From NCBI RefSeq assembly GCF_026210795.1, contig NC_089436.1, forward strand, positions 744,001-808,000: a stretch of 64,000 nt of DNA, read 5' to 3'. The notes beneath the pieces were generated by a model. The model was not told the origin of the DNA. It worked only from the letters and a program-made list of their open reading frames with translations, and did not search any database. How positions within the stretch are numbered: the first letter of the stretch is position 1; every line of letters starts with the position of its first letter. Positions 7,246 to 23,281 of the stretch are shown in pieces. The stretch comes from Rhizophagus irregularis (Eukaryota; Glomeromycota; Glomeromycetes; Glomerales; Glomeraceae). The position numbers and the translations under genes are program-made.

Positions 7246-7768
7246 ACAGGTCGAAAAGTGAAAAATCAGGCACCAATCAGTCACCAATCAGGTAGCTGAT
7301 TGGTGACTGATTGGTAACTGATTGGTGACTGATTGGCATTTTCGCCAAATACCGTTACCAATCAGGCAGTTTGCTAACTTTTGATCCAGTGATCAGAAAA
7401 GGATGAAATATAGCTCATTGGAATCGTCTCAACATGATGAATCTAATGGTAGTAAAATCGCATTTCTAGGATTAATACTTGATGAGAAATTAAGTAAAAT
7501 ATAAAAATAAAAATGTATCATTTATATTTTATTTAATTTTTTATTAACTATTAATCCTAGAGATGCGATTTTACTACCATTAGATTCGTCTTGTTGAGAC
7601 GATTCCAATGAGCTATATTTCATTTTTTTCTGATCACTGGATCAAAAGTTAGCAAACTGCCTGATTGGTGACGGTATTTAGTGAAAATGCCAATCAGTCA
7701 CCAATCGGTCACCAATCAGGTACCTGATTGGTGACTGATTGATGCCTGATTTTCACTTTTTGACCTGT
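7246..7768. mobile_element. Fold-back MITE, 523 bp, nearly a full palindrome
   Basis: The left half starts ACAGGTCGAAAAGTGAAAAA and the right half ends with its reverse complement (TTTTCACTTTTTGACCTGT). Both halves carry tandem copies of a CTGATTGGTGA motif and an inner GATTTTACTACCATTAGATTCGTC segment, around a short AT-rich loop. The flanks suggest a TTA 3-bp target duplication, which would fit PIF/Harbinger-type MITEs (tentative). The opposite arm of the surrounding inverted repeat lacks it. Confidence 0.75.
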
Positions 7769-8561: not shown

Positions 8562-8924
8562 ATTAAAAGTTACTGTAAAATATATTGTAAATTTAATTAT
8601 AAAATACAGTACGAATGCATTATCTAATGTAAAAATTAGGATGTTTCAAAGATGCCAAAGATGATTTACATCAACTGTATCCTTTATTGCAACCTTTTTC
8701 CTTTCCTTTTGTTATAATTGGATAGTCACGGATTTTTAAGCGACATAGCTACCCTAGTGACATAACTATAACAAGGTGGGAACCTGATTTGAACACTTGA
8801 TCCATTGATCGATCGGAACTGAATTTTCTGCAGATAAAGAATTTAAGCTATTAATAGTATTCAGTAAACTCCCTCTTATTACTTCCTTCCAGCCATTCCT
8901 TCGGCTCTTACTTTTTAGTAGTGC

Positions 8925-9407
8925 GTCGTCGGTCTGGATGTGTGTCTCGCTACCGCTCCACCCACCTCGGACTCACGTCCTCGCAGTACCTATATCTCGC
9001 TATCGCTCCACCTATATCGCCCCTACGGGGATCAGGAATCCCCATATATCCGCCACAATCTGGGACAACATATGGAACAAATATATATACCAAATAACTA
9101 GAAAATAATAGAAAAGGAAGGAATAACGGATATAATAAGAGGGTTGTCCCAGATGTGGCAGATGTGGCAGATGTTTCAGAAAAAATATGAGAGGACATCC
9201 CCCCAGAAAAAGTTTTATTTTTACCCCCAGATCCGCCACATCCGAACATCTGGAACAAGTCAGGATTCCGTCTAATAATCTATTGGAAGCAGTGAGACAG
9301 CAAACCAGGTAAATTAGTAGGTAAGCCCCTAGAAGGTCTATAGAGCCCAGTAAGACCAACCCCGTCCCGCCCCCGTCAGAAAAAATAAGTAATTGAACAA
9401 TGGGTAT
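8925..9407. repeat. Left terminal inverted repeat of the Polinton
   Basis: About 483 bp, nearly identical in reverse complement to 22792-23276, with few mismatches. The pairing stops just after AATGGGTAT. It contains short internal repeats of GATGTGGCA and two related CGCTACCGCTCCACC/CGCTATCGCTCCACC motifs near the tip, which could be transposase or terminal-protein contact sites (inference). Open frames inside it are not genes. Confidence 0.95.
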
Positions 9408-9445
9408 TGAGAATGAGCATATCAAGATAAGTTTAGAAGACAGTA

Positions 9446-9765
9446 CTAATCCGTCTTCTTCTTTTTTGCCTCCTTAAGGCATTTATCAATACACTGTTTA
9501 CACGTGTCATCAGAATCTAAGATTTTCTGTCCAAGTTTTTTGCATTGCCGATTGTAAGCCGTCTGCTGTCTCTTAGCAGCGGTTTCTTTCTTTTCTCCTT
9601 AGTCTTCTTCTTGATCACCCAGTCTATTCCAGTAAAAGTATTCTTATGCATACCACAAATTGTGCAGTCACCATGCAGCCGGTAACGCCCATTTGTAGTC
9701 ATATCTTGTATTTTACTAGCCGTCTCAGTTTCCTTCTTGCACTTTAGGCAGTAAAAACGTGTCAT
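9446..9765 (-). CDS. Small zinc-ribbon protein (frameshifted)
   Basis: The protein begins MTRFYCLKCKKETET and has a C-x2-C pair at residues 6-9 and a second C-x2-C in HGDCTICGMHKNTF. This pattern resembles the short zinc-ribbon proteins (DUF5679-like) common in large DNA viruses and related elements. After about residue 56 an A-rich tract (near 9590-9600) shifts the frame. The continuing frame reads QCKKLGQKILDSDDTCKQC and ends in a lysine-rich tail at 9446, giving another C-x2-C pair. It would be a basic, nucleic-acid-binding protein of about 105 residues. It is divergent from the integrase with about 45 bp between the starts. The exact role is unknown. Confidence 0.7.
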
Positions 9766-9809
9766 TTTAAGATTTGAAGTCTAAAACCATTCCTTTAATT
9801 TGTTGTAAT

Positions 9810-10897
9810 ATGTCACACTTAGAGAATTACTATAAGTACTACAATCTCTCCGGAGTACCAGCACGAATTCTAAAAGGTGAAGAGCACTACAACCTATACA
9901 AAAAGCCCCTAAAGGAAAAGTCAACAGAACGCCCAAAGGTAATTGTATGGAAACCAAATGCAACACATCAGGCAGATCTTGCAGAGATGCCAGTTGACCC
10001 CAAAGGATTCCACTATTTCCTCGTAGTGGTGGAAGTTGCAGGAAAGAGAGTTGATGCAGAACCCCTAAAGGATAAGACTGCAAATAGAGTTCTAAACGGG
10101 TTTGTCAAAATCTACAGAAGAAATCGTATTAAGCCACCAACACACAGACTGGAGACAGACTCCGGATCAGAATTCACTAACGACCAGATACGTGATTTTT
10201 TCCTGAACAGCCTAGGGGTAATGATGAGGTTCGGCGAACCAGGAAGGCATAAACAGCAATCTTATGCTGAAAGAGCTATCCAAGCCATCCAAGAACCCCT
10301 TCTTAAACGAATGGTAGCACAGGAGTTGAAAACTGGGGTGACATCCGTGGAATGGTCAGAAGATTTCCATAATATAGTGAGTAAAGTAAATGAACTCTGG
10401 CAGAGAAATCCCCCAGACATTCCGACAGGGTCACCCAAAGTGTCAAAAAAGACAGACCTCCTCTCTAAAGGAACACGTGTCAAGTCAAGTTAGATGAACC
10501 TATTTCTGTCTTGGTAACAAAGCAAGGAAAATTCCGTACAGGAGGCATAAGATGGAACCCAAACATTCGTGTAATCAAAAAAATGATACTCTCACCTGAA
10601 CAGCCTCCTACATATCTCCTTAATGGACCACATGGTCGATTAGGTGTATCCAAATGTGCATATACCCGAAAGGAATTGCAAGTAGTTCCTATTAATGAAA
10701 AGCCTCCACCTGACTCTGTGATAAGAGGACAACCTGAAAGATTTGTACCTGAGCAGATACTTCGGCATCGCATTAGAAAAGGTCAAGACCAGTATTTGGT
10801 TAAGTGGGAGAGATACCCAGATACAGAAGCCACTTGGGAACCTGCTGACCAGTTGAAGGAAGATGTCCCTGACTTAATTCGCAAATTTTGGGAATAA
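9810..10897 (+). CDS. Polinton integrase (rve fold) with C-terminal chromodomain, frameshifted
   Basis: This is a retroviral-type DDE integrase that would insert the element's linear DNA. The catalytic residues are visible: D in HQADLAEMP (D56 counted from the ATG at 9810), D in RLETDSGSEF (D117) and E in QQSYAERA (E154), with 36 residues between the last two. The first frame ends at a TAG at 10491-10493. The downstream frame (to 10897) carries a typical chromodomain, QDQYLVKWERYPDTEATWEP, as in other Polinton and chromovirus integrases. The break is a tandem 5-bp duplication, GTCAA twice at 10479-10488, and one copy would keep a single frame. An ATG at 9774 is also possible, but 9810 leaves room for a divergent promoter. 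The gene converges with the protease end of the Gag gene, 25 bp away. Confidence 0.9.
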
Positions 10898-10922
10898 AAA
10901 AAAATAGAAGAATTAAAGGGTC

Positions 10923-13868
10923 TTATTTTTTGTCTCCTCTATTCACATCAGGAACTATCGGGATAAAAACATTCTTCCCATCACAGGTAAAGGCTATATG
11001 TTCACGTGATTCATGGACATCATAATTGTAACGTTTCAGACATGTCCGGCTCAATCCAATTTCCCTATGCTTGTATCCATCTAAAACTGCAAGATCCTCA
11101 GTGATAGCATAATCAGGGGTAAGTTTGATTGACCTCCCTTTACCATGCCGAATGTCCTACCTGTTCCTGGAGCACCAGATATGTTGTATGTAATACTCTT
11201 GTCGATATTCAACCCTAATTCCTCAGCAGCTTCTCTCTGAATAAAAGACGCATTAGCACAAGTGTCTGCTAAACACTGAATTGCTATTCCATTAACCTCC
11301 CCATCCAGTGCTAAAAGATCTTTAGTATTCTCCAAACGAGCTATATCAATATCCATAGGATCGTATTCCCTAATATCCTCTTCTTGTTCCTCCTCAGCTA
11401 AGTCATCTGAAATCTCTATGACTTTTCTAGCAGATATCATCTCCTCCTGAAGAATCTCACGGAGTAATTTCCTAAAGTCTGCAGACCTTAACAGGCTTAA
11501 TAAGTCATTCTTAGTAACAGCTTTTGCAGGTGTAGACTTACTACCAGTAACTTTCACAGGAATCTTAACAGGGGTTGCTTTACTTTTCAAGGGTACACTA
11601 GAAGAGCTAACTGCTGTCTTATTTGGGGACGACTTAAGAAGTTTTGAGATACTCGAACCTACTTTTTTTTTGACCCAACACGAACCATATAGACATCACC
11701 ATCTTTTTCTCTCAATTCTACCTTTTCACCAAAACTCACAGTATCAATGTCCATAGCATCATCATTAAGATCAAGATTTCTCATTGCTCGGGCTAAATCC
11801 AGATCATCACGTCTATCTTTAGCCTTCTGAAGTTGATTTGTAAGTATTTTAGACGTCCCACGTTTATATCCCATAATAAGATCAATAGCATTTTGATGAT
11901 CATCCAAAGTCCACTCAGGAGCATCAGGGTCATCACCAACATCATGATCTACATAACCATCATCCCAATCAGGATCCTGAGGATCCTGAACAACACGTCT
12001 CTGTGGTTTTGGTCGAACAGGTTTAATCTGCTGTCTATAGACTGGTGGATTACGAACTGGCCGAGCCTGTAATTGTTTAAATTGCACCTGAAAATTCTTG
12101 GTAAGTTCGTCAGCTTGAGCCTTAAGTAACTTTTGTAATTGTTCTTGAGTAACCCCAGATGACTTTGATGTCAGTACGACAGGTTCCTGTTTTCCTAACG
12201 GAGGTTGAGTTACATCACTGTAATCTGCTTGAAGTCGTCGATTTCTATCTTGTAACCCCAAGCGCATTTCAGCCCTTCTCCGTTCTAAATTTCTCAGATG
12301 TTTAACCAAGTCATCAGGATTAAGATTACTAAACCTTTCTGCTTCAAAAATATTATCAGCCGAAAGACCTCTAAAGAACTGGTCGATAATAAGATCATCA
12401 GTTAGTTTTAGTAATTTACCAGCTCTCTTTACAGTTCTATAAAATGCATCAACTGGCTCATTTTCCTGATAAAGACTGTTAAAATGGATACGTTTCTTTT
12501 CATCTAAAATAGTTGGGAATTGTGTTCTAAGCCAATAAAGCGCCTGGTTAGGTTTAATACCTGGAAAAACTATAGAACGATTATTATTAGCAGCAACACC
12601 AGCATCTGCAGTAGCTGGAGCAGCTCTATCTGTCGGACGAGCACCAGCTCTTCCCCAAGCTTTATCTCCACCTATTAAATCATGGGTAGGAATAAATGCT
12701 GCTCTAATAGTTACTAATGCATTAGCTACATCTGTAGCATGAACATCTGCTTCAGACCCATTTACATAGGTACCTGCATTTGGTCCTCCTGCACCTTCTG
12801 GTATTACTAATGCTACAAAAGCAGCTAAATTAGCTCCACCTCTTGAAGTGATACCAGAAAGTTCCCAATTTTTTCCTGTAATTTTCGATCAAACCATTCA
12901 GCCGCTTCACCAGCCATGCAGCTTAAAAAGTATACCCAGTAGCTCTTTTCAAGACTCTGGTGGCCATCCAACAGCATATGGGTTAAGATTAATAGTATCA
13001 AGATAACCCATATAAAGCCTAACAAATGTATCAATATCATCAGTAGCTTTACCCTCAAAAATCGGCAATCCTATCGCAGTGGTAGCCATATCGTCTCTAG
13101 TGGATTGTTTAATATAGGTGGAGGAGGGTTCAATTGTCTAATTCGAAACCATTGTACCTGAATTCTAAGAGCAGCTATCTGTTGGAAAAGTCTATTCCTA
13201 AGTCTCCCTAATGTCTGAATCCCAAAACGCACCCTATTATTAGCATGTGCTAGCTGTACATTAACCTGTCCAAGTTGCGCATTAGCCAATACAAGTTGTC
13301 CTCCAGTCCGAGTAGCCCTCAGCCGCCAATGATTTAAAAGGATATTACCACGATTCACAGCATTTTGAGCCTCATTACGATCCCTTACTGCTTGAGTATA
13401 ATCTGCTTGTAATACATTACGTTCATGTCGTGCCTGATTACGTTCACCTATAGCCCGTCGACGAAGCTCTACCATAGTATCATAATCTCTTTGCAGGTTA
13501 TGGTTTTCTTCTATAAAATTATCATTGGCAGCACGTATAATAACTAATTGACGTTCTAAATTAGTAAACGTTTCATCAAATGCATTTATCTTACCTTGTG
13601 CAAAAACTAACAAATCTTTTGTAATACCAAGTTCTTCATGTTTTGCTTTACAGCGATACATTAATATATTAATAATATGTTTGATTTGATTATTTGCCTC
13701 CTGTATCTCTGAATCAACAGTTAAACGACCCCTGGTAGTCAATAAATTTGCATGAGCCTTTAGTATTCTAACTAATTCATCATCGTCTTTTTCATTGACC
13801 AAGTGTGCAGGAGGTGGTCCAGTAGGTTCTGAAGGAGTATAAACTGGAATTGGTGTTGATGTCGACAT
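10923..13868 (-). pseudogene. Retrotransposon-type Gag-aspartic protease gene captured by the Polinton
   Basis: On the minus strand the first frame (13868-13071, 265 aa) starts with a PSEPTGPPPAHL motif and continues as a long Q/N/R-rich coiled coil. A capsid-like part follows in other frames (about 13090-12310). It includes a GEAAEWFDRKL segment typical of Ty3-type and Rhizophagus Gag, then a region up to LRNLERRRAEMRLGLQ. A basic/acidic segment ends at 11659. The protease frame (from 11590) has CLADTCANASF, which matches the retropepsin active-site loop with the usual DTG changed to DTC. It continues after a frame change near 11148 with a REIGLSRTCLKRYNYDVHES segment and stops at 10923. Frame changes occur near 13085, 12955, 12875, 11665 and 11148. 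No reverse transcriptase, RNase H or LTR surrounds it. It lies 25 bp from the integrase end and 31 bp from the ATPase start. Confidence 0.85.
11659..11671 (-). promoter_or_regulatory. Possible -1 ribosomal frameshift site at the Gag/protease junction
   Basis: The Gag frame reads TCA AAA AAA AAG TAG on the minus strand. The protease frame is exactly the -1 frame, and A-AAA-AAG is a classical slippery heptamer with a stop directly after it. LTR retroelements commonly join gag and pro this way. The alternative is a simple length error in the 9-base A run, which is plausible given the other indels in this gene. Confidence 0.4.
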
Positions 13869-13899
13869 AGTATTTAAACTAAGTTAGAATAAAATTCAA
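13869..13899. promoter_or_regulatory. Short bidirectional promoter between Gag and ATPase
   Basis: Only 31 bp separate the ATG of the Gag gene (13868, minus) from the ATG of the packaging ATPase (13900, plus). The spacer is AT-rich (TATTTAAACTAAGTTAGAAT) and holds a TTTGAATTTTATT stretch on the minus strand, similar in style to the ATTGAA motifs upstream of other element genes. Transcription of both genes must start from this spacer or inside the neighbouring gene. Confidence 0.45.
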
Positions 13900-15123
13900 A
13901 TGGATCTTTATGTATACAATTTGGACGAGTACACGACCGACTCAAGACAAGGCAATGAGTTTGCTCCATCATGGCCCTTTCGATTAGCCATAGCAGGTAG
14001 CTCAGACTCAGGTAAGACAACTATGATCATTAATTTGTTAATGGGTGACAAGAAAGTAAAGGAGGATGGTAATCGGTATGTACTATGTGATGCAGTACTT
14101 TTAGTTGGCAGATATCTTGACGAGCCGAAGTGGGCAGTTGTACATGATTTTTTCGAAGAGGAGAAGATCCCATTCACTGCAGTAACCCATAGTGAGATTC
14201 CAGAGATTGACTCCTTCGACTCTACTCAAGCTACTGTGGTAATCTTCGAGGATCTGATGGATGCACCTAAAAAAATCCAGGATCTCATCACTGGTTACTT
14301 TACACATGGACGACACAAAAATATTTCATGTATTTATGTAGCTCAAAGATTCTTTGCCATTCCTAAGGCTATTCGAGAAAATGTTAACTACATCTCACTG
14401 CATGGAGGTCATGGGAGCCTTACAGATACTAAGAGAATCATTCGCCTATATACAGAAGAATCAGAGTCATTAGCACCAGTAATTGATAATCTTACTTTGC
14501 AACGTGAATTTGTAGTGTTTGATCTTAGACGGTCTAAAAGTGATCCACTGTCCATTCGAGTAAGATGGGATACTAGTCTCAGTTCGATCACAGAGCAATC
14601 TCAGTTCAATCCTAGTTCAATCTCAGTTCAATCTCAGTTTGATCCAAGTTTGAACCCAGTTCGATCTCAGTCTGAACCCAGTTCAATCACAGTTCGATCC
14701 AAGTTTAGTCCTTATGGTCAGAAAGCTGTATCTGAAGCAAAAAAAGGTGGACACTTGATTGAATTTGCTCGGGTATTTCCATCCCCTAAAGAGCGTCAAC
14801 ATTTACTTGTACCTGGTGTCTTAGCCAAGAATACAGATACCTGGATTAAATTTGTCTTTCGGGAAGCTTATGGACTTTCTGGTAAGACCCTAGGAGCTGA
14901 CTTTCAGGACTTCTTAGCAAAAGTACAGGGTAGGACTGCAAAGACTGAAACTCTGAAAACTGAGAATGTGAAGGAGTTATTCTCCCGATATGAAGCCCTG
15001 AAGTCTAGTCGCCCTCTGGATAATAAAAAAATAATAGAAGGAATTGAAGTCCTTCTACAGATCTTTTCTAAGAGCCACATGGACCGTCGAGCATTACAAG
15101 TAGGGATTAATAGTATCTTGTGA
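13900..15123 (+). CDS. FtsK/HerA-family (A32-like) genome-packaging ATPase
   Basis: This is an intact 407-residue frame. Walker A is IAGSSDSGKTT at residues 31-41, Walker B is ATVVIFEDL at 111-119, and a YVAQRFFAIPKAIRENVNYI segment at 147-166 matches the region after Walker B in Polinton and virophage packaging ATPases. Its role is ATP-driven translocation of the element's DNA into a capsid. Residues about 225-270 are a repeat of S-Q-F-(N/D)-P-S units, coded by a DNA minisatellite at about 14570-14710. A further domain of about 135 residues follows, ending KSHMDRRALQVGINSIL, so the protein is longer than a minimal A32-like ATPase (about 230-280 residues). It is divergent from the Gag gene. 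Retaining an intact packaging motor where no jelly-roll capsid gene is seen is notable. Confidence 0.92.
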   Translation: MDLYVYNLDEYTTDSRQGNEFAPSWPFRLAIAGSSDSGKTTMIINLLMGDKKVKEDGNRYVLCDAVLLVGRYLDEPKWAVVHDFFEEEKIPFTAVTHSEIPEIDSFDSTQATVVIFEDLMDAPKKIQDLITGYFTHGRHKNISCIYVAQRFFAIPKAIRENVNYISLHGGHGSLTDTKRIIRLYTEESESLAPVIDNLTLQREFVVFDLRRSKSDPLSIRVRWDTSLSSITEQSQFNPSSISVQSQFDPSLNPVRSQSEPSSITVRSKFSPYGQKAVSEAKKGGHLIEFARVFPSPKERQHLLVPGVLAKNTDTWIKFVFREAYGLSGKTLGADFQDFLAKVQGRTAKTETLKTENVKELFSRYEALKSSRPLDNKKIIEGIEVLLQIFSKSHMDRRALQVGINSIL

Positions 15124-15159
15124 GAATATCAAGTAATTCGTCTGCAGAAGCTCTAAGAA

Positions 15160-15664
15160 TCATAGCACTTTTTTACGGCCTTCAAAGTCAATCCTTAACA
15201 TCTTAGCCTTCAACCCTATTGCTCCTAAGGCACGAGAAGCAAAGTTCTTAGTCATTGAATTACTTATATGATTTACATAGTTCTCATAGAATGTATTGAA
15301 AGGCTTGTCGATACCATCTGGATATGTACCCCTTAGAAATTGATATAAGGCAATTTCTCCACTATCACAACCTATGGCTATAAGCTGTTCGAGAAGCCAC
15401 TTCCTAATATCTTCATATGGCTCTCCATCCATAATTTTCATATCCAGTCTTTGTGTAAACAATTGTGTAAAGTCCACATTACTTGCCTGACGAATGATCT
15501 GAACTAACTTATCCCTAGCAAGTCCCAAGGCTTAGAGGGTCATTCTCATCACTAATCTTCTTTATAATCTGTCTGTATAATACACTGGATAATCCTCTAT
15601 GTGCTGTTTTTGGAGTGATTACTCCACAGTTTTGGCACTGGTTTATTACGATTGATGTTGACAT
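15160..15664 (-). CDS. Unknown Polinton protein, about 168 residues (one frameshift)
   Basis: From an ATG at 15664 the frame starts MSTSIVINQCQNCGVITP, with one C-x2-C pair, and runs for about 45 codons to a TAG near 15530. A second frame continues LGLARDKLVQIIRQASNVDF and ends GRKKVL at 15160. A one-base change in the CTAAGCCTTGGG stretch would join them. The protein appears helical and charged. Its 3' end faces the ATPase end (37 bp). I do not recognise a family. Confidence 0.65.
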
Positions 15665-15709
15665 GGCTATCTTTCTTTATGTAAAAAAGAATTATTCAAA
15701 ATTAAGTAA

Positions 15710-16291
15710 CTATTCAGAGCAGTCCTTGCACAACTTGTCCGTTAAGTCACTTGGGCTTACAGGCATGAGACATTCCCTACACAACTCAATATTAAGCTCT
15801 GCAAGTCTCGGGGTATGGTCCTCCAAAGTTCGTGGACGACTGGAAGGACCGGAGGAAGGTGTTCCGTTAGTCGTATCTTGCTGTAAGATAAAATCATCAT
15901 ATTCATCTTGGTCAGCCTGAATAGCAGTCCTGATTTGTTGTATATCATTGAAAGTTAACCGCTGCCCATCAAGATTTTCCTCATTATAGCGTGTTTCATT
16001 GATGATTTCCTCTATAAGCGCCTCTTCTTCATAATGGACAAGGTAGTAATCCTCAACTACCTCATAGTCACTCTCAATCAGTCTATAATATGTTCTAGTA
16101 CCACGTCGAACATAACGTCCTGTATCTGTATTTAAATATACAGGTTGCTCTTCAGGTGGAGGTGCAGTTTGTCTACGGACAAGCCTTCCATCAATATAAT
16201 CATGGGATTCCATAACTATTCGATTAAAGGTATCTCCACCGATAATAATTGGACGTCCAGTTATAGGGTTAGCTATATAAGGGTAAGACAT
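15710..16291 (-). CDS. Unknown 193-residue protein with an NPxTGRxI motif and C-terminal zinc motif
   Basis: This is an open frame starting MSYPYIANPITGRPIIIGG. The NP-x-TGR-x-I..GG signature resembles the '2-cysteine adaptor' type motif in proteins of large DNA viruses, though the flanking cysteines of that domain are not present here. The middle is rich in E, Y and D. The C-terminus has CRECLMP...LCKDC, two C-x2-C pairs that could bind one zinc ion. Other proteins with this motif are often structural or adaptor proteins, so a virion role is possible but unproven. An AAATTGAAG motif lies about 40 bp upstream (16330-16338). Confidence 0.7.
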   Translation of the reverse strand: MSYPYIANPITGRPIIIGGDTFNRIVMESHDYIDGRLVRRQTAPPPEEQPVYLNTDTGRYVRRGTRTYYRLIESDYEVVEDYYLVHYEEEALIEEIINETRYNEENLDGQRLTFNDIQQIRTAIQADQDEYDDFILQQDTTNGTPSSGPSSRPRTLEDHTPRLAELNIELCRECLMPVSPSDLTDKLCKDCSE

Positions 16292-16356
16292 GTCTTTTTT
16301 CTGTACGTGTCTACATACCTAATAGTTTTCTTCAATTTACAATAACCAAGTGACAC

Positions 16357-16560
16357 GGTCATCAGTCCTTATCAAAAAATACAAGAATACCTGATGATAA
16401 GATTACATGGTCATCAGTCCTTATTAAAAAATGCAAGGATACCTGATGATAAGGTTACATGATCATCAATCCTTGTCGAAAAAATTCAAGGATACCTGAT
16501 GATAAGGTTACATGGTCATCAGTCCTTGTCAAGAAATATGAGGATACCCGATAAATAAGC
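16357..16560. repeat. Four tandem 52-bp units, each an imperfect hairpin
   Basis: Units start at 16357, 16409, 16461 and 16514. Each has GTCATCAGTCCTTGTC followed by a short A-rich loop and CAAGGATACCTGATGA, which pairs back to the first part. The array sits in the longest non-coding gap of the Polinton, between the 193-residue gene and the first F-box gene. It could be a transcription terminator cluster, a replication or packaging site, or a neutral satellite. The sequence cannot decide between these. Confidence 0.85.
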
Positions 16561-16642
16561 TACTCCTGTTGAGTCCATTCATTCCACTTCCAGTCCAGTC
16601 TCCAAGGATCGCCTCCCCATCTTTGTTCACTTAATGCATGCT

Positions 16643-16972
16643 CTATGGTTTCCCTCTGGGGTCCACGACCATCCCATTCCTAAGCATTTTCTCCATAATA
16701 TAAAGCTGATCCTCGGTGAGGCGGTCTATCCATCTTTTATAGAAGTCGTTTACATCTTCAAATGATATCCAGTCAATATTCCCTTTTTCAAACGGCTTTC
16801 CAAGAGCTTGGACATGCCCAATTGTAGTAGCATAATTTTTCCATCTCTTATATGCTTCTTGACGAACCTCCTGCCACCACACACTATCTACTTTACTCGC
16901 TGCAATAAGGTCAGTATCTGGGATCTTTGCAACAATGCGTTCGACTATTTCTACTGGTAATCGGTCCAACAT
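16643..16972 (-). CDS. F-box protein 1 of the Polinton
   Basis: This is a complete 109-residue frame. Residues 1-45 (MLDRLPVEIVERIVAKIPDT, then DLIAASKVDSVWWQEVRQEA) fit the F-box consensus: LP.E....I...I...DL......V...W. F-box proteins dock on Skp1 and bring substrates to the SCF ubiquitin ligase. No leucine-rich, WD or Kelch repeat follows, and the rest is charged helical sequence. An AATTGAAG motif lies about 30 bp upstream (17001-17008, minus orientation). Viral F-box proteins often redirect host ubiquitination, so a host-directed role is inferred. Confidence 0.75.
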   Translation of the reverse strand: MLDRLPVEIVERIVAKIPDTDLIAASKVDSVWWQEVRQEAYKRWKNYATTIGHVQALGKPFEKGNIDWISFEDVNDFYKRWIDRLTEDQLYIMEKMLRNGMVVDPRGKP

Positions 16973-17092
16973 GATGTTATGTTACTTATACTATAGCCAT
17001 CTTCAATTACTGTATGCCCATTACAAATGGATAAAAAATATAAACTAAATTCGTACGGGAGCCGCTTATGCAAGAAGTTCTGCTAAGGTTTT

Positions 17093-17536
17093 TCAGGCCT
17101 CGTTTTTAGTAATAGATCGCTTTGGGGGACCGGTTGATGAGTCCTTAGTCGCATTATAATACAATTCGAAGAGGGCCTCAAGTTTGTCTAAAAGAGCTTG
17201 TTTATTCTTGTATGATTCACGAATCTTTGCTATCTTAGCAGTATATGCTGCATTATCTGGGAAGAGTTTTCTGGCCACGAACTTCACATATGATACAGGA
17301 GAATTTGCCGTCTGGATTCGCTTGATATACTTCACATGATCCTGGACAAGGTAGCTGGTTTTGCTAAACCCAGATACTAATGCGACTACTATAGTGTCTT
17401 TTCAATGCACGGATAATGCGAGGACAGTTTCATCAGAGACAATGGTGAACTGATTGTGTGATGCATCATAAATAACTTTATCACTAATGCTGTCAGTGCT
17501 GTTAATAATGCTTGCTAATTCGGTATATGTTGACAT
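17093..17536 (-). CDS. Unknown Polinton protein, about 147 residues (disrupted)
   Basis: From the ATG at 17536 the frame reads MSTYTELASIINSTDSISDK and meets an in-frame TGA at 17402-17404. The same frame continues with SGFSKTSYLVQDHVKYIKRI to a stop at 17093. Between them another frame looks more protein-like (RIIRALKRHYSSRISIW), so a pair of compensating small indels is as likely as a single nonsense change. The C-terminal half is lysine-rich and helical. The promoter-like motif CTTCAAATT (minus: AATTTGAAG) is at 17578-17586. No family is recognised. Confidence 0.55.
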
Positions 17537-17649
17537 GATTCCTTATACTTTTTTGTACTTTGTAATAAATAGGAATCTTCAAATTGACTTTACATTCAAG
17601 CAAGAAAAAATATATATACCTACTGTAAATCCAACCGCATTCTTGGAAA

Positions 17650-19530
17650 TCATGTCCAGATAACCTTGTTTGCATTTTTCACATGGCAGTATCCTGCGGT
17701 TTCAAACTTGAGAGCTTTCAATGCTTTGGATGCATTTTCTGGACAAGTGATAAGTGTAGGACTACTCGGCTGTTCCTCTAGAATAAATCCATCTGTATGG
17801 ATGCGTCGTACTTTATCCTTATATGGTTCTAATAACTCTGAAGTCGTCTTCCGTCCATGTGCTAATAAGAATGGAGCGATCCTAGGATACTCACCCTTGA
17901 AGGGACTACCTGGGTTTGTGAACTGGAATCGCCACTGGTCAGATCCTACTGGTACGATGGAGTCAAGTGTGTGGCCTTCTGGAAACTTGAATGGATCTGT
18001 TTGATCTGTGGTGAGTATCTTGTAATTGCGTTTCCTCTGGCAGAGTGCTCCCCATAGTGTATTGAGAACTCTCTTTGCAACACGACCGGCCACGCCACCC
18101 TGGTTCTTTATATTGAAGAGAAAGTGGACATACTCACCAAATATTACAGTCCCAGGAATTCTTGCTTCTCTGTCATATATCAAGGCATTTGGCTTTCCAT
18201 CCTGGATTAACTGTATATCGAGTCCAAGTTTTTTTGCTCGTTGTAAGTCAATGAATGTATAGACTCCCCTCTTATTCTGTCGGAAGAGAATATCATTACC
18301 ACTTACCGCTTGCCTTGGGCGCTCCCGGAGCTAGCACGAAATAATCCATACAAGGCATAACCTCTATGGTCTACAAAGTCTTTGAGTATTTGAAACTTAC
18401 CTTGTCGGATTGGAAAGTTTGCATTTGATTGCTGAATACTTGGATACAAACTTGTCACGTCGTATTGCCTTCCATAGCCCTTCCATTCGTTGTCTGCCCA
18501 GATAAGACCTCCCATCATTGCATCACTTATCCACTCTGCTTCGACTGGGTCAAGAGGATCATTGGCTGGAACCCCTACACTAAACCGTTCAAAAAGCCAG
18601 AGTGCAGTTCTCTTGTACGACCAGTTGTGGTAAGATAAGTCAATTCCTAGACCCGAACTTCTTTGTAGCCTGTAGGAAGGAATCCCGCTCTTCATGGATC
18701 CTCTGGTATGTTTCCTCAAGTGTTTCATATATTCCAGTTTTACAATTCTTCTCGATAGGGATGAAGGAGTAACTATCAGAGTTCTTACCTTTCTGAAACT
18801 GTCCAACTGTAAGAGACTTAACTGTCTTACCATTGTATATTTTTACTACATTATTAACCCCATCTTCACGATAAACAAAGGGAGACTTTTGTTTTCTATC
18901 TAATTTGCTAGGGTGGAGTCTTCCGGGATTCAGTGCAAGAGAGTAGTGGCCTTCAGACAGGATAAGTGTTGCACGTCTGTCAGATTTGCTCTTAGAAATT
19001 CGAGTGGAATCCCCTACAATATTAAGTGCAAGGCTTCCTGCAAGTTGTTCAATCTTATCCATATATGAGACTGGAACTGGAGCATCACGATTGAGACCTA
19101 ATGCCTTTTTGATATACTCGGGCTTTTCGATTGACTTTGGCATTTTAGAGAATGTGCCGTAGATATATTTCAGGCATTCATACAGGCAATCATTTAGCTC
19201 CCCGTTGCAACCCCCTGCAACCGGTGGGGCATCTCTCACATAAATTATGAATCGTTCAAAATAATCAGGGTCTGCGTCATCCGGTAGTTGTGCTTCGTCG
19301 TAGTGGACTAAGAGTGAGAAGAGGCTGGCTGGTTGGTTTCCTGATGTCCATCCACCGGGTTTCCAGTTTTCATAGGGGAGCAGAATCTGAAATTTATGTG
19401 TCGGATACCGGGATTGGAGTCGCTGTCCAAATCTTGCTATTGCTCCTCTGGAAAATCTTGCGCCTGAATACTGTAATTCTTTGATATCCGGTCTTGTAGG
19501 TAAAGCACGGACAATCTCTGAATAAACCAT
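17650..19530 (-). CDS. B-family DNA polymerase (protein-primed type) with unusual N-terminal domain, frameshifted
   Basis: This is the replicase of the element. Three frames follow each other: 19530-18640, about 18690-18303 and about 18300-17650. Polymerase motif A is YDVTSLYPS, motif B is the KRVLNTLWGALCQRK segment and motif C is RRIHTDGFIL. Only about 60-100 residues separate the N-terminal domain from motif A, and I do not see exonuclease motifs. This would be short (about 620 residues) compared with typical Polinton polymerases (around 1000). Residues 105-200 of the first frame carry LNDCLYECLKYIYG and LILSEGHYSLAL, a Cys/His arrangement reminiscent of OTU-type cysteine proteases (tentative). 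Frame changes lie at about 18650 and about 18310. Confidence 0.88.
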
Positions 19531-19613
19531 TTGATGTATTTATGAATTGTGTTCAGTTGTAATATAGGTTTTTTATACAAAAAATATAAGATAACTAAGA
19601 AGTGCTTATCTTA

Positions 19614-20637
19614 TTAAAAGGAGTCAATCTTGCTGCATACACGATCAAGATCCTCTTCATCCCAGTCGTCGACAATTCCATTGGCGGCTTCCCATTCACG
19701 TTCCATATCAGTTTTTGGACATTCCTCGGGGATCTCTCGCGCTTTACCCTTATTCATCTTCATAGTTTCATAACCGGAGGTGGTAGGGATAATCTCGGCA
19801 TCATGATCCTCCTTATATGCTCTTATTAGATCTGCGAGTTCTTTACGGCTAGGTGTTTTAGGTAAGTACCCATTATATTCTATCCAGTCCTTGAAGCGGT
19901 CTACTACCTCCCTAAGGTAGTACTGGTACTCGTCCTCAATACGTGTTGTGGGACATTCCTCTACTTCAAATGCGAGTATTTCCCAGTCATAGTCGTCTGA
20001 CACGTCTTGGTACTTAGCCCATAAATCCTCACCCTGTATTGTAGAGATCATTGAAGACCTGGTCCTTTGAATTCTCGACCCATGGCTTATGATCCCATCG
20101 GTGCCTTTCATACCAAGCCCAGTGTGCTCGAGTACCTTCCTTTGGTTCAGGGTCCCAGTCAACTTCTAGTTCTGTGTCAGGTTCTGGGATAGGTTGCTTT
20201 TCAGGAGCCGGTTCTGGATCAGGCTTAGTAACAGATGCAGAAAATTCTGCGGGAGACTCGGGTTGTTGTTCAGGAGCTGGGTTCACAGTTGTAAAATCTG
20301 AGTCAGATAGCAAGTCATCTAAAACGTCGTAGTCATCATCAGCTTTAAATGCAGGTTCCTCAGCAGGCGGTTCATTTTCTTGATCAGGTTTCTCATCAGA
20401 TAGATAACAGTCCGAGAAGCTATCTATAGGTTCATCAGTATCTGACTCTATAGGAGCTGGAGATTCTTCAGGAATAGGATCCTCATTGATGACAGGTGCG
20501 GGTTTTACCTTCAAGGAATCGGGTTTGGGTGGTACTGGTGGTGAAGTCTTTTTGGGAACTACAAGTGCAGATTTCTCTTCAGTAGGCTTTTTCTTGACAG
20601 GGAGCGGGTTTTTCCTCAGCAGGTTTCTCTTGTACAT
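19614..20637 (-). CDS. Acidic, proline-rich C-terminal region of the helicase gene (out of frame)
   Basis: Two overlapping frames (20637-20029 and 20162-19614) follow the helicase. Near 20600 the helicase frame reads EEKPAP and a one-base change continues directly as VKKKPTEEKSALVVP. It is therefore most simply the tail of the helicase gene rather than a separate gene. The first part is rich in P, E, D and S with repeats of PEP and EEPA type. A tryptophan-rich motif (HWAWYERHRWDHKPW) follows. A second frame change near 20035 leads to a helical region (LREVVDRFKDWIEYNGYLPK) ending at 19614. The role is unknown. Acidic tails of this kind often bind proteins or mimic DNA. Confidence 0.6.
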
Positions 20638-22183
20638 CTTGTGGATTATTAGCAGGAATGCTATATATATTTGCCAAGAACTTTTCTAAGGCTTTGGGAT
20701 CAGATGCGGGCTTCTCAGGAGTTTCTACATCTATTCCTTCTATATTGATTTCATCTGTTTCGTGGATCCATTTTTTGGTGAGAAACTTTTTGTAAAGGTC
20801 CTCCCTGGATATGCTGTAAACTCGTGGTGTTGCCTTACCTACACGTATTTTTCTGCTATTTATACCCAACTCATTTGATAGGATTCTAGAAGCGTTTATC
20901 TTTGATAGGGGTGTAATGCAATGAGTTTCGCAGTATGAAGTATATACCCTATAAAATTCTTGAACAGGTAGGTCGGTTATATGATTTTTTACTATGAGGT
21001 AAGTGTCCTTTATGAATTGAAATAGGGGTGGGAGAGTTGATATGATGTGATCCTGCTTAGATATTGTCATAGGTGGTGGATTCCCATTGAAGTCTGGGTA
21101 AGTGTCTGCAATGGCTCTCAAGTAAGCATAGAATGCCTCACTGGCGCCTGGGTATTTCATAGCATCGCTGAGTTTCTTAAAGTAGTTAAGGTCTCCCTTG
21201 CGGGATGGTGACACATCCAAGAACACTGTGCGCCTATCGTCATTCTCCACTCTGAGAGCATTTTCATTGGTGAGTACAATAGTGGATATAAAGTTTTTGT
21301 AATGTGTTGGCGTCTTGTATTTTTCATGGATTTCCATTATGTCACCTGTTACCTTATCCTTCAACGATCGATACAGATTATTCCACTGGCTTTTTTCTGT
21401 AGGCATTTCCTCGAGGAGGAGAAGAATCTTACCTTGTAATTGCCCATTGAAACTTCCAAGAATCGTTTGAGGATCGCTGGTCTTATAAACAAGTTGAGTA
21501 CCTAAGACACTACGTTGAATGAAATCTGTTATAATACTCTTACCCCAACCCTGTCCGGATTTCAGGTAGAGAATCGAATACATTTTCCTTCCAGCTGCCA
21601 CACCGGCCAACCACTTTATGATATACTCAGTAAGATTCCAATCGCCTGAACACCAGATATCCTGAATGTGGGAGAAGATAAATTTAACTGCCTGATGGGT
21701 TGTAGACTCAAAATTGGATATCAGACGCAGGATATGGAGAAATCCTGGGAAGATATTGAGATAAAGTTGGCCACCTAGTTTAAAGATACGGGATTTTTGA
21801 GGGTCACAGGTAGCTACACATACAGTACTATATTCGATCATAAACCATTTGTTGATATTGAATTCAACCTTTTGTGAAGGACCTTGTTCGGATTGTGTGT
21901 AAAAGACTTTGGTAATTGGACGGATAAGTTTACTAATATTTTTATCGGGGATGTGCTCGAGGTTTTTGATTTCTGATCGCCACATGAAGACTCCATGTGG
22001 GTTGGAGCAGGGGATAAAGTAACTGCAAAGATAACCTTTAGCTTGATTGAGATCCCTCATATTCTTTGCAGCGTTAATGAGCCGTTTAAGCTCATCAATA
22101 CTAAAAGCCTTCTTCTGTTCACCGAACTTGGGGATAACTTGAGCTTGAGTGCTAGTTTGGGCAGTCATTTTTTGTTCTATCAA
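20579..22183 (-). CDS. Superfamily 3 helicase (D5/poxvirus-primase-helicase type)
   Basis: This is a 534-residue open frame. Walker A is SGQGWGKS (209-216), the Walker B-like motif is KILLLLEEM (252-260), SF3 motif C is STIVLTNEN (300-308), and an arginine-finger-like ENDDRR is at 313-318. SF3 helicases unwind the replicating DNA of small DNA viruses, virophages and some Polintons, here presumably working with the protein-primed polymerase. The N-terminal 200 residues contain no clear primase motif. The frame ends at a one-base break near 20600 and would otherwise continue into the acidic region to 19614, giving about 855 residues. An AATTGAAG motif lies about 30 bp upstream (22212-22219). 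Confidence 0.9.
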   Translation of the reverse strand: MIEQKMTAQTSTQAQVIPKFGEQKKAFSIDELKRLINAAKNMRDLNQAKGYLCSYFIPCSNPHGVFMWRSEIKNLEHIPDKNISKLIRPITKVFYTQSEQGPSQKVEFNINKWFMIEYSTVCVATCDPQKSRIFKLGGQLYLNIFPGFLHILRLISNFESTTHQAVKFIFSHIQDIWCSGDWNLTEYIIKWLAGVAAGRKMYSILYLKSGQGWGKSIITDFIQRSVLGTQLVYKTSDPQTILGSFNGQLQGKILLLLEEMPTEKSQWNNLYRSLKDKVTGDIMEIHEKYKTPTHYKNFISTIVLTNENALRVENDDRRTVFLDVSPSRKGDLNYFKKLSDAMKYPGASEAFYAYLRAIADTYPDFNGNPPPMTISKQDHIISTLPPLFQFIKDTYLIVKNHITDLPVQEFYRVYTSYCETHCITPLSKINASRILSNELGINSRKIRVGKATPRVYSISREDLYKKFLTKKWIHETDEINIEGIDVETPEKPASDPKALEKFLANIYSIPANNPQDVQEKPAEEKPAPCQEKAY

Positions 22184-22259
22184 ATCGAGTACTAATTTAT
22201 AGTTACCTAATCTTCAATTGCCGAATATTTTTCCAAAAATCTGCACTCCTACCAATTTA

Positions 22260-22330
22260 CCCTCCTGTAGTCCTATGGTCCTGCAATTCTGCGGTCCTCC
22301 GGTCCTCCGGTCCTCTGGTTATATCTGGTT
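22260..22330. repeat. CGGTCCTC microsatellite
   Basis: In the 219-bp spacer between the helicase start and the second F-box gene, GGTCCTCC-type units are repeated three to five times, with variants such as GTCCTATGGTCCTGCAATTC. There is no evident function beyond being repeat-prone DNA downstream of the F-box 2 stop. Confidence 0.6.
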
Positions 22331-22402
22331 ATCTTCTAGGGGTAAAAAAAAACTATAAACCACGAACCTTTACGACTGCTCTAAATCTTCCCTTCCCCTT
22401 TT

Positions 22403-22762
22403 TCAAACTACATATATCTGAAATCCAAACCGCTCAAGAGCTCCTTTTACTATAGTTAGCTTTTTTCTAGTGTCCGTTAACTCTTTACAAGCCTTTTGAT
22501 ACGCCTTCCATTCAAGTTCACGGAGGATACCCTCCTCCTCCAATGATTGGCCAAGAGCATCATTTGCTTTTTCCTTCTTTTCTACTGCCCTGTCGTATGC
22601 CTCCTCGGCTTTTTTATGCCACTTCCAGAGTACTCGTTCAGCTTCGGCTTTCCAGATTGGGCTGACTTCTAAAAGACGTGGCCCGAAATTGCTACTTGGA
22701 ATGTGTTCCAGGATATGGCCTACAAGTTCGGGAATTACTGATACTGCGTGCGGGGTATACAT
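22403..22762 (-). CDS. F-box-like protein 2 of the Polinton
   Basis: This is an intact 119-residue frame. Residues 8-46 (SVIPELVGHILEHIPSSNF, then LLEVSPIWKAEAERVLWKW) match the F-box layout (P.E....I...I......LL.VS..W). They are followed by a charged, probably coiled-coil helix (residues 48-110, KKAEEAYDRAVEKKEKAND). There is no substrate-binding repeat domain. The start lies only 29 bp from the inner edge of the right terminal repeat. The motif AATTGAAC (22801-22808, minus) is inside that repeat, so the repeat itself may carry the promoter. Confidence 0.65.
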   Translation of the reverse strand: MYTPHAVSVIPELVGHILEHIPSSNFGPRLLEVSPIWKAEAERVLWKWHKKAEEAYDRAVEKKEKANDALGQSLEEEGILRELEWKAYQKACKELTDTRKKLTIVKGALERFGFQIYVV

Positions 22763-22791
22763 GTTATCTGTCCTTATAGGTTACTTATGGT

Positions 22792-23276
22792 ATACCCATT
22801 GTTCAATTACTTATTTTTTCTGACGGGGGCAAGACGGGGTTGGTCTTACTGGCTCTATAGACCTTCTAGGGGCTTACCTACTAATTTACCTGGTTTGCTG
22901 TCTCACTGCTTCCAATAGATTATTAGACGGAATCCTGACTTGTTCCAGATGTTCTGGATGTGGCGGATCTGGGGGGGTAAAAATAAAACTTTTTCTGGGG
23001 GGATGTCCTCTCATATTTTTTCTGAAACATCTGCCACATCTGCCACATCTGGGACAACCCTCTTATTATATCCGTTATTCCTTCCTTTTCTATTGTTTTC
23101 TAGTTATTTGGTATATATATTTGTTCCATATGTTGTCCCAGATTGTGGCGGATATATGGGGATTCCTGATCCCCGTAGGGGCGATATAGGTGGAGCGATA
23201 GCGAGATATAGGTACTGCGAGGACGTGAGTCTGAGGTGGGTGGAGCGGTAGCGAGACACACATCCAGACCGACGAC
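22792..23276. repeat. Right terminal inverted repeat of the Polinton
   Basis: About 485 bp, the reverse complement of 8925-9407. The two differ by a few substitutions and single-base indels. The outer end CCAGACCGACGAC is followed directly by the target duplication AGTGC. High identity between the two repeats suggests recent insertion or gene conversion. Confidence 0.95.
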
Positions 23277-23281
23277 AGTGC

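What the first reader, a model, noticed from the sequence alone, without database searches (positions are those of the whole stretch)
10923..15123. Polinton carrying a retrotransposon Gag-aspartic protease gene where capsid genes are missing
Seen: a Gag-type coiled coil and capsid segment (GEAAEWFDRKL) plus a retropepsin-like ADTCAN loop, in a compact slot between the Polinton integrase and packaging ATPase, without LTR, RT or RNase H. Also seen: no reading frame of the length or character of a double-jelly-roll capsid, penton or adenain-like protease, while the packaging ATPase is intact. Known: Polintons normally encode those proteins, and Gag shells with retropepsin processing are the retroelement solution to the same problem. 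Inference: this lineage may have exchanged its capsid module for a captured Gag-Pro, a hybrid of a DNA virus-like transposon and a retroelement.
Basis: partly seen in the sequence, partly recalled or inferred. Interest (0 to 1): 0.88.

Follow-up and report, generated by a model that had tools for sequence, protein, structure and literature searches.

The report
Polinton with a retrovirus-type capsid gene
A virus-like DNA transposon with about a hundred full or partial copies in the genome of a likely arbuscular mycorrhizal fungus carries a gene predicted to make a retrovirus-type shell protein (Gag) next to its protease gene, no gene for the usual shell protein of its kind was found in it, and it likely builds its particles from Gag instead, which would explain why no shell gene had been found in these elements.

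Summary
The element spans 8925-23276 (14,352 bp), with ~480-bp inverted repeats and a 5-bp duplication. Between integrase and A32-type packaging ATPase, on the other strand, lie a coiled-coil ORF, a Gag and a retropepsin; no LTR, RT or RNase H was found.

It is not one insertion: of 99 Gag places in the same genome, 96 have the integrase and 89 the ATPase on the expected side and strand, and all 99 have at least one. Two subfamilies (Gag ~54% alike, ATPase ~86%) share this. Gag and protease show purifying selection. The best 50 fold matches of a Gag model are all retro-type capsids, though no E-value is below 0.027. Protease follows Gag in -1 at an A-run in six of six loci examined, from three lineages. 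More distant Polinton-like lineages of this genome have the same gene set, and Gag cores were exchanged between families. The window's own gag and pro frames are broken. That Gag forms the particle is inferred, not shown.

The parts
8920..8924 (.). Target duplication AGTGC, left copy
8925..9407 (+). Left terminal inverted repeat
9520..9780 (-). DUF5679 zinc-binding-like ORF
   Evidence: Pfam PF18930 E 1.6e-16
9771..10490 (+). Integrase core
   Evidence: rve E 2.2e-9
10469..10894 (+). Integrase C-terminal part with chromodomain (frame broken from the core in this copy; one frame of 376 aa in others)
   Evidence: Chromo E 4.7e-18
10926..11156 (-). C-terminal piece of the protease (other frame in this copy)
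11084..11695 (-). Retropepsin-like protease, active-site loop ADTCAN
   Evidence: PF13650 E 3.2e-7; PDB best 7efy E 0.0058
11659..11673 (-). A9 run before the Gag stop, candidate -1 slippery site; protease is in -1
11662..12888 (-). Gag, main frame (capsid C-terminal domain and tail)
12828..13089 (-). Gag N-terminal part, frames disrupted in this copy; ATG at 13087-13089 overlaps the coiled-coil stop
   Evidence: sequence; frames; other copies
13071..13868 (-). Coiled-coil ORF, 265 aa
13900..15123 (+). A32-type packaging ATPase, intact
   Evidence: Pox_A32 E 8.2e-10; PHROG terminase 3.3e-8
15160..15528 (-). Unknown U1 (191 aa in a relative)
   Evidence: no significant family
15710..16291 (-). 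Unknown U2, 193 aa; weak 2-cysteine adaptor motif
   Evidence: PF08793 E 0.0019 below cut-off; nothing
16643..16972 (-). F-box-like ORF (below cut-off)
   Evidence: F-box E 0.0056
17653..18842 (-). Family B DNA polymerase, in pieces
   Evidence: DNA_pol_B_2 E 3.5e-5 (below cut-off) and 0.16
20582..22213 (-). Primase-type helicase
   Evidence: DUF5906 E 1.2e-17; PHROG primase 1.1e-24
22792..23276 (-). Right terminal inverted repeat
23277..23281 (.). Target duplication AGTGC, right copy

Best explanation
The window holds a 14.35-kb Polinton that carries a predicted Gag gene and a retropepsin-like gene between its integrase and its packaging ATPase, and these likely form and mature the particle that the ATPase would fill with the element's DNA, in place of a jelly-roll capsid. 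Shown by sequence: gene order, recurrence in about a hundred places and in distant lineages, purifying selection, the -1 relation at an A-run, no LTR or RT found. Predicted: Gag has a retro-type capsid fold; most ribosomes would make Gag alone and a fraction would slip back one base to make Gag-Pro, as in retroviruses. Inferred: Gag assembles a shell, the retropepsin cuts it to maturity, the A32-type ATPase drives DNA in, PolB copies the DNA and the integrase inserts it; coiled-coil proteins (in other lineages with a membrane anchor) would be scaffold or membrane partners. The Gag-Pro block was probably captured from a retroelement before the lineages seen here split, and Gag cores were later exchanged between them.
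For: Order DUF5679-INT-chromo-Pro-Gag-coiled coil-ATPase in 20 of 20 fetched subfamily-A copies (the 20 best of 99, the window's included). Of 99 Gag places 96 have INT, 89 ATPase, 86 both, 99 at least one, on the expected side and strand (about 1.4 chance pairs expected). A-B dN/dS: Gag 0.40, Pro 0.144, ATPase 0.094, INT 0.074. Foldseek and VIA rows shown are all retro-type capsids. Protease in -1 at an A9 run in 6 of 6 loci from three lineages. Second lineage: 13 of 15 Gag places of 75% identity or more have an A32 ATPase on the opposite strand within 4.2 kb. ATPases, proteases and integrases of the lineages are homologous. 24 of 105 second-lineage Gag proteins carry a core like the window's Gag; 31 of 225 proteins have a CCHC knuckle. 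ATPase kept under constraint although no MCP is found; nine MCP-less Polintons of Krupovic et al. had lost ATPase and protease too.
Against: No particle, cleavage or frameshift has been shown. Foldseek E-values are 0.027 or worse, Pfam Gag hits are below cut-off. The protease loop is DTCA, not the canonical D[ST]GA (canonical rule recalled), so activity is uncertain. No CCHC knuckle in the 120 listed relatives of the window's Gag. 26 of 46 second-lineage-type Gag places, all 45% alike or less, have no A32 ATPase found within 8 kb. How an A32-type motor would work with a Gag shell is unknown. Other jelly-roll genes in the genome are not excluded.
Confidence: 0.65

Rival explanations
1. Gag-Pro is a captured, conserved accessory module with another role, such as interfering with competing retrotransposons (as Fv1 or Ty1 p22 do, recalled) or guiding element DNA in the nucleus; the element itself is a capsidless transposon.
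For: Gag is the fastest-changing gene of those compared besides the coiled coil (A-B dN/dS 0.40), and Gag cores are exchanged between families, as a restriction or arms-race factor might do; 26 of 46 Gag places of the second type lack a nearby A32 ATPase.
Against: The protease and its -1 relation are kept in all three lineages examined, and so is the packaging ATPase in the main family, which a capsidless transposon would not need.
Confidence: 0.2
2. A jelly-roll capsid is supplied by a cryptic small ORF of this element or in trans by another element or virus, and Gag-Pro is additional.
Against: No unassigned frame of double-jelly-roll size; sequence searches of unknown ORFs gave no capsid; the literature names this fungus's Polintons as lacking a detectable MCP (passages of PMC7805220).
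Confidence: 0.1
3. The direction is reversed: these DNA elements had Gag-Pro first and retroelements of the host took it from them.
For: All organism-named proteins among the 120 listed relatives of the window's Gag are from Rhizophagus, and no adjoining RT was seen in the loci read.
Against: Retro-type capsids, CCHC knuckles and -1 gag-pro frameshifting are widespread in retroelements (established knowledge); the search sees only close relatives.
Confidence: 0.04
4. A single LTR retrotransposon insertion or a chance resemblance in this copy.
For: The window's own gag and pro frames are broken.
Confidence: 0.01

Closest known systems
Polintons/Mavericks (PMC4028283, section 4 read)
   Same: Integrase, family B polymerase, A32/FtsK-type ATPase, terminal inverted repeats
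   Different: There 46 of 72 encode a full jelly-roll MCP and 13 a split one, 74% the adenain-like protease; here neither was found, and Gag and a retropepsin are present
MCP-less Polintons of Glomus intraradices (R. irregularis) named in PMC7805220 (passages seen)
   Same: Probably the same elements; no MCP detected there or here
   Different: There the lack of MCP is told as the idea that some Polintons lost it for a transposon life; Gag-Pro is not mentioned in the passages seen
Ty3/gypsy-type LTR retrotransposons and their Gag descendants PEG10 and Arc
   Same: Predicted capsid fold, retropepsin, -1 frame relation of gag and pro
   Different: No LTR, RT or RNase H found; sits in a DNA element with PolB and packaging ATPase; ~95-residue insert in the capsid domain; no CCHC knuckle in the window's family

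Membership tests
Polinton/Maverick | retroviral-type DDE integrase | tested here: met
   rve E 2.2e-9, above cut-off
Polinton/Maverick | family B DNA polymerase (protein-primed) | tested here: inconclusive
   DNA_pol_B_2 E 3.5e-5 and 0.16, both below cut-off, gene in pieces; protein priming not tested
Polinton/Maverick | A32/FtsK-type packaging ATPase | tested here: met
   Pox_A32 E 8.2e-10
Polinton/Maverick | long terminal inverted repeats | tested here: met
   8925-9407 and 22792-23276
Polinton/Maverick | 6-bp target duplication (recalled, not treated as defining) | tested here: not met
   5 bp, AGTGC, in the one copy whose two ends were seen
Polinton/Maverick | double-jelly-roll MCP (usual, not universal: 46 of 72 full, 13 split) | tested here: inconclusive
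Polinton/Maverick | adenain-like cysteine protease (usual, 74%) | tested here: inconclusive
   no such family in the 20 frames scanned with Pfam; not sought by fold
Gag (retro-type capsid protein) | capsid (CA) fold | tested here: met
Gag (retro-type capsid protein) | CCHC zinc knuckle (common, not universal) | tested here: not met
   none of 120 listed relatives of the window's Gag; present in 31 of the 105 second-lineage proteins
Gag (retro-type capsid protein) | assembly into particles | not testable with these tools
   needs experiment
Retropepsin (clan AA) | family profile and catalytic D-[ST]-G | tested here: inconclusive
   profile met (E 3.2e-7); motif is DTCA in the window's family, canonical DTGS/DSGA in some relatives; activity untested
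-1 programmed frameshift of gag-pro | A-run heptamer with downstream frame at -1 | tested here: met
   sequence signature in 6 of 6 loci, A9 in 17 of 20 subfamily-A copies; slippage itself and a downstream structure were not tested
LTR retrotransposon | LTRs, RT and RNase H | tested here: not met

The most novel reading that the evidence does not exclude
Arbuscular mycorrhizal fungi host a clade of double-stranded DNA, self-replicating virus-like elements whose virions are built from a retro-type Gag shell, made as Gag and Gag-Pro by -1 frameshifting, matured by a retropepsin and filled with DNA by an A32-type ATPase, with Gag cores swapped between lineages. Such a virus would fit no viral realm that is defined by its capsid.
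Probability: 0.5. Interest if true: 0.97.

Novelty: new variant of a known kind. Interest (0 to 1): 0.88.

Why it matters
Polintons are held to be central to the origin of jelly-roll DNA viruses, and those of this fungus were a named puzzle because no capsid gene was found (PMC7805220, passages). A Gag-Pro block kept at about a hundred places beside a constrained packaging ATPase suggests that a DNA element exchanged its capsid for the retroelement solution. It makes testable whether a capsid can be replaced across virus realms, whether an A32-type motor can work with a Gag shell, and whether these abundant fungal elements are viruses.
Full report
THE ELEMENT. The window lies in an unnamed 146.7-Mb assembly of 32 contigs. 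The Gag of a sister copy is up to 98% identical to proteins of Rhizophagus irregularis DAOM 197198, so the host is taken to be that arbuscular mycorrhizal fungus (inferred). The element runs from 8925 to 23276, with inverted repeats 8925-9407 and 22792-23276 and a 5-bp duplication AGTGC; 13 other fetched stretches show the same end motif beside different flanks. Pfam finds DUF5679, rve integrase, chromodomain, retropepsin, A32 ATPase and DUF5906 helicase above cut-off, and F-box and DNA_pol_B_2 below cut-off. By gene content it is a Polinton.

NOT A SINGLE INSERTION. All 20 fetched subfamily-A copies (the 20 best of 99, the window's included) have the same order; three fetched subfamily-B copies show coiled coil, Gag, protease, integrase and ATPase too. 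By coordinates, of 99 Gag places 96 have the integrase and 89 the ATPase on the expected side and opposite strand (medians 1,183 and 1,003 bp); 86 have both and all 99 at least one. Conversely 91 of 106 ATPase and 97 of 114 integrase places used have a Gag place within 9 kb. The Gag search scored only 102 of 270 candidates; 12 of the 15 ATPase places without Gag have a protease match nearby. Gag is about 54% and ATPase about 86% identical between subfamilies. DNA identity between one copy of each drops to 33-71% across the coiled-coil ORF and the Gag core and is 73-97% on both sides, save one window of 61% after the Gag end: this block diverged faster or was exchanged. Constraint is clear all the same: A-B dN/dS is Gag 0.40, Pro 0.144, coiled coil 0.58, ATPase 0.094, INT 0.074; pooled within A 0.44, 0.31, 0.40, 0.23, 0.12 (20 A and 3 B copies, Nei-Gojobori). 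Gag dS near 1 is close to saturation.

FRAMESHIFT. The Gag stop follows a run of A and the protease continues in -1: TCAAAAAAAAAGTAG (A), ACAAAAAAAAAGTAA (B), GGAAAAAAAAAGTGA and AGAAAAAAAAAGTGA (second lineage), GTAAAAAAAAACAGGTAA (third lineage), 6 of 6 loci examined. The run is A9 in 17 of 20 A copies, A8 in two, A7 in one; one B copy (L030) reads through differently. Environmental relatives end in KKK too (P0019, P0021, P0064, P0073). The heptamer A AAA AAG or A AAA AAC is a known -1 slippery class (recalled). No downstream RNA structure was tested.

OTHER LINEAGES. Two remote protease matches (27-28%) led to a second Polinton-like lineage: A32 ATPase, integrase with a longer tail, an 805-aa coiled-coil/Gag frame, -1 protease (PF09668 E 1.6e-4, below cut-off), coiled-coil/membrane-anchor frame and a large family B polymerase (DNA_pol_B E 4.5e-41), with no unassigned frame of capsid size inside it; its own terminal repeats were not found. 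Of 46 Gag places of this type, 15 are 75% alike or more, and 13 of these have an A32 ATPase on the opposite strand within 4.2 kb, start to start. Of the other 31, five short matches have an ATPase within 8 kb (three on the opposite strand) and 26 have none. One of these 26, read 3.1 kb upstream, has a related integrase on the opposite strand (E 8e-19 to the second lineage's). A third lineage (L036) has a Gag end with a CCHC pattern seen by eye, a -1 protease-like frame without a Pfam match but 24% alike to the second lineage's (6e-9), coiled-coil and membrane-anchor frames, ATPase and integrase. L037 shows coiled coil, integrase and ATPase; its Gag lies outside the piece, if there is one. ATPases of four loci are 37-46% alike (its E-values are for a set of 19 sequences). 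Second-lineage Gags bear database names from Rhizophagus, Glomus, Entrophospora, Paraglomus, Cetraspora, Diversispora, Gigaspora and Ambispora (105 proteins); 24 of 105 carry a core like the window's Gag (best 2e-34, in a set of 105), so Gag cores have moved between families. The genome contexts of those proteins were not seen.

BREADTH. ATPase relatives are common in environmental contigs (228 proteins, best 120 listed). Gag P0043 and ATPase P0257 both come from an ENA contig listed as 9,782 bases, probably the same one (inferred). No relative was found in IMG/VR.

NO JELLY ROLL FOUND. No unassigned frame is of double-jelly-roll size, and sequence searches of unknown frames gave no capsid. 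A 2021 Microbiome paper (PMC7805220, passages seen) names the Polintons of Glomus intraradices (R. irregularis) among those without a detectable MCP and says that none was found still. PMC4028283 (section 4 read) reports full MCPs in 46 of 72 Polintons, split ones in 13, and nine MCP-less elements that had also lost ATPase and protease. Here the ATPase is kept and constrained, which argues for a particle. PMC8647823 (passages seen) lists Maverick among recently expanded families of this fungus, with numerous copies of low methylation.

WHAT IS SHOWN AND WHAT IS NOT. Shown: a conserved Gag-Pro block as an integral part of a Polinton family and of distant relatives. Predicted: capsid fold and -1 frameshift. 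Inferred: shell formation, maturation, DNA loading, origin by capture. Untested: any biochemistry, any genome-wide jelly-roll search, folds of U1 and U2.

Noticed in passing
L032, L034, L035 (G000:C8:3482500-3503000) and L033 (C7:4477500-4484000): A second Polinton-like lineage with Gag, -1 protease, A32 ATPase, integrase and a large family B polymerase with exonuclease domain.
   Followed up: partly
L036 (G000:C9:50500-58000): A third lineage with a CCHC pattern in Gag, a -1 protease-like frame, membrane-anchor frame, ATPase and integrase.
   Followed up: partly
window 16643-16972: An F-box-like ORF (below cut-off) in the Polinton, possibly a link to host ubiquitin ligases.
   Followed up: no
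window 20582-22213: A primase-type helicase (DUF5906), to my recall unusual in Polintons.
   Followed up: no
window 16322-16563: Four copies of a 52-53-nt direct repeat between U2 and the F-box-like ORF.
   Followed up: no
window 7253-7762: Dense inverted repeats outside the element with arms up to 231 nt.
   Followed up: no
P0095: A database protein that joins part of this Gag to PF20147 (a domain that I recall as Crinkler-type), possibly a fusion or a gene-model artefact.
   Followed up: no
Gag residues ~81-175 (numbering of P0019): A conserved ~95-residue insert in the capsid domain without a confident model.
   Followed up: no
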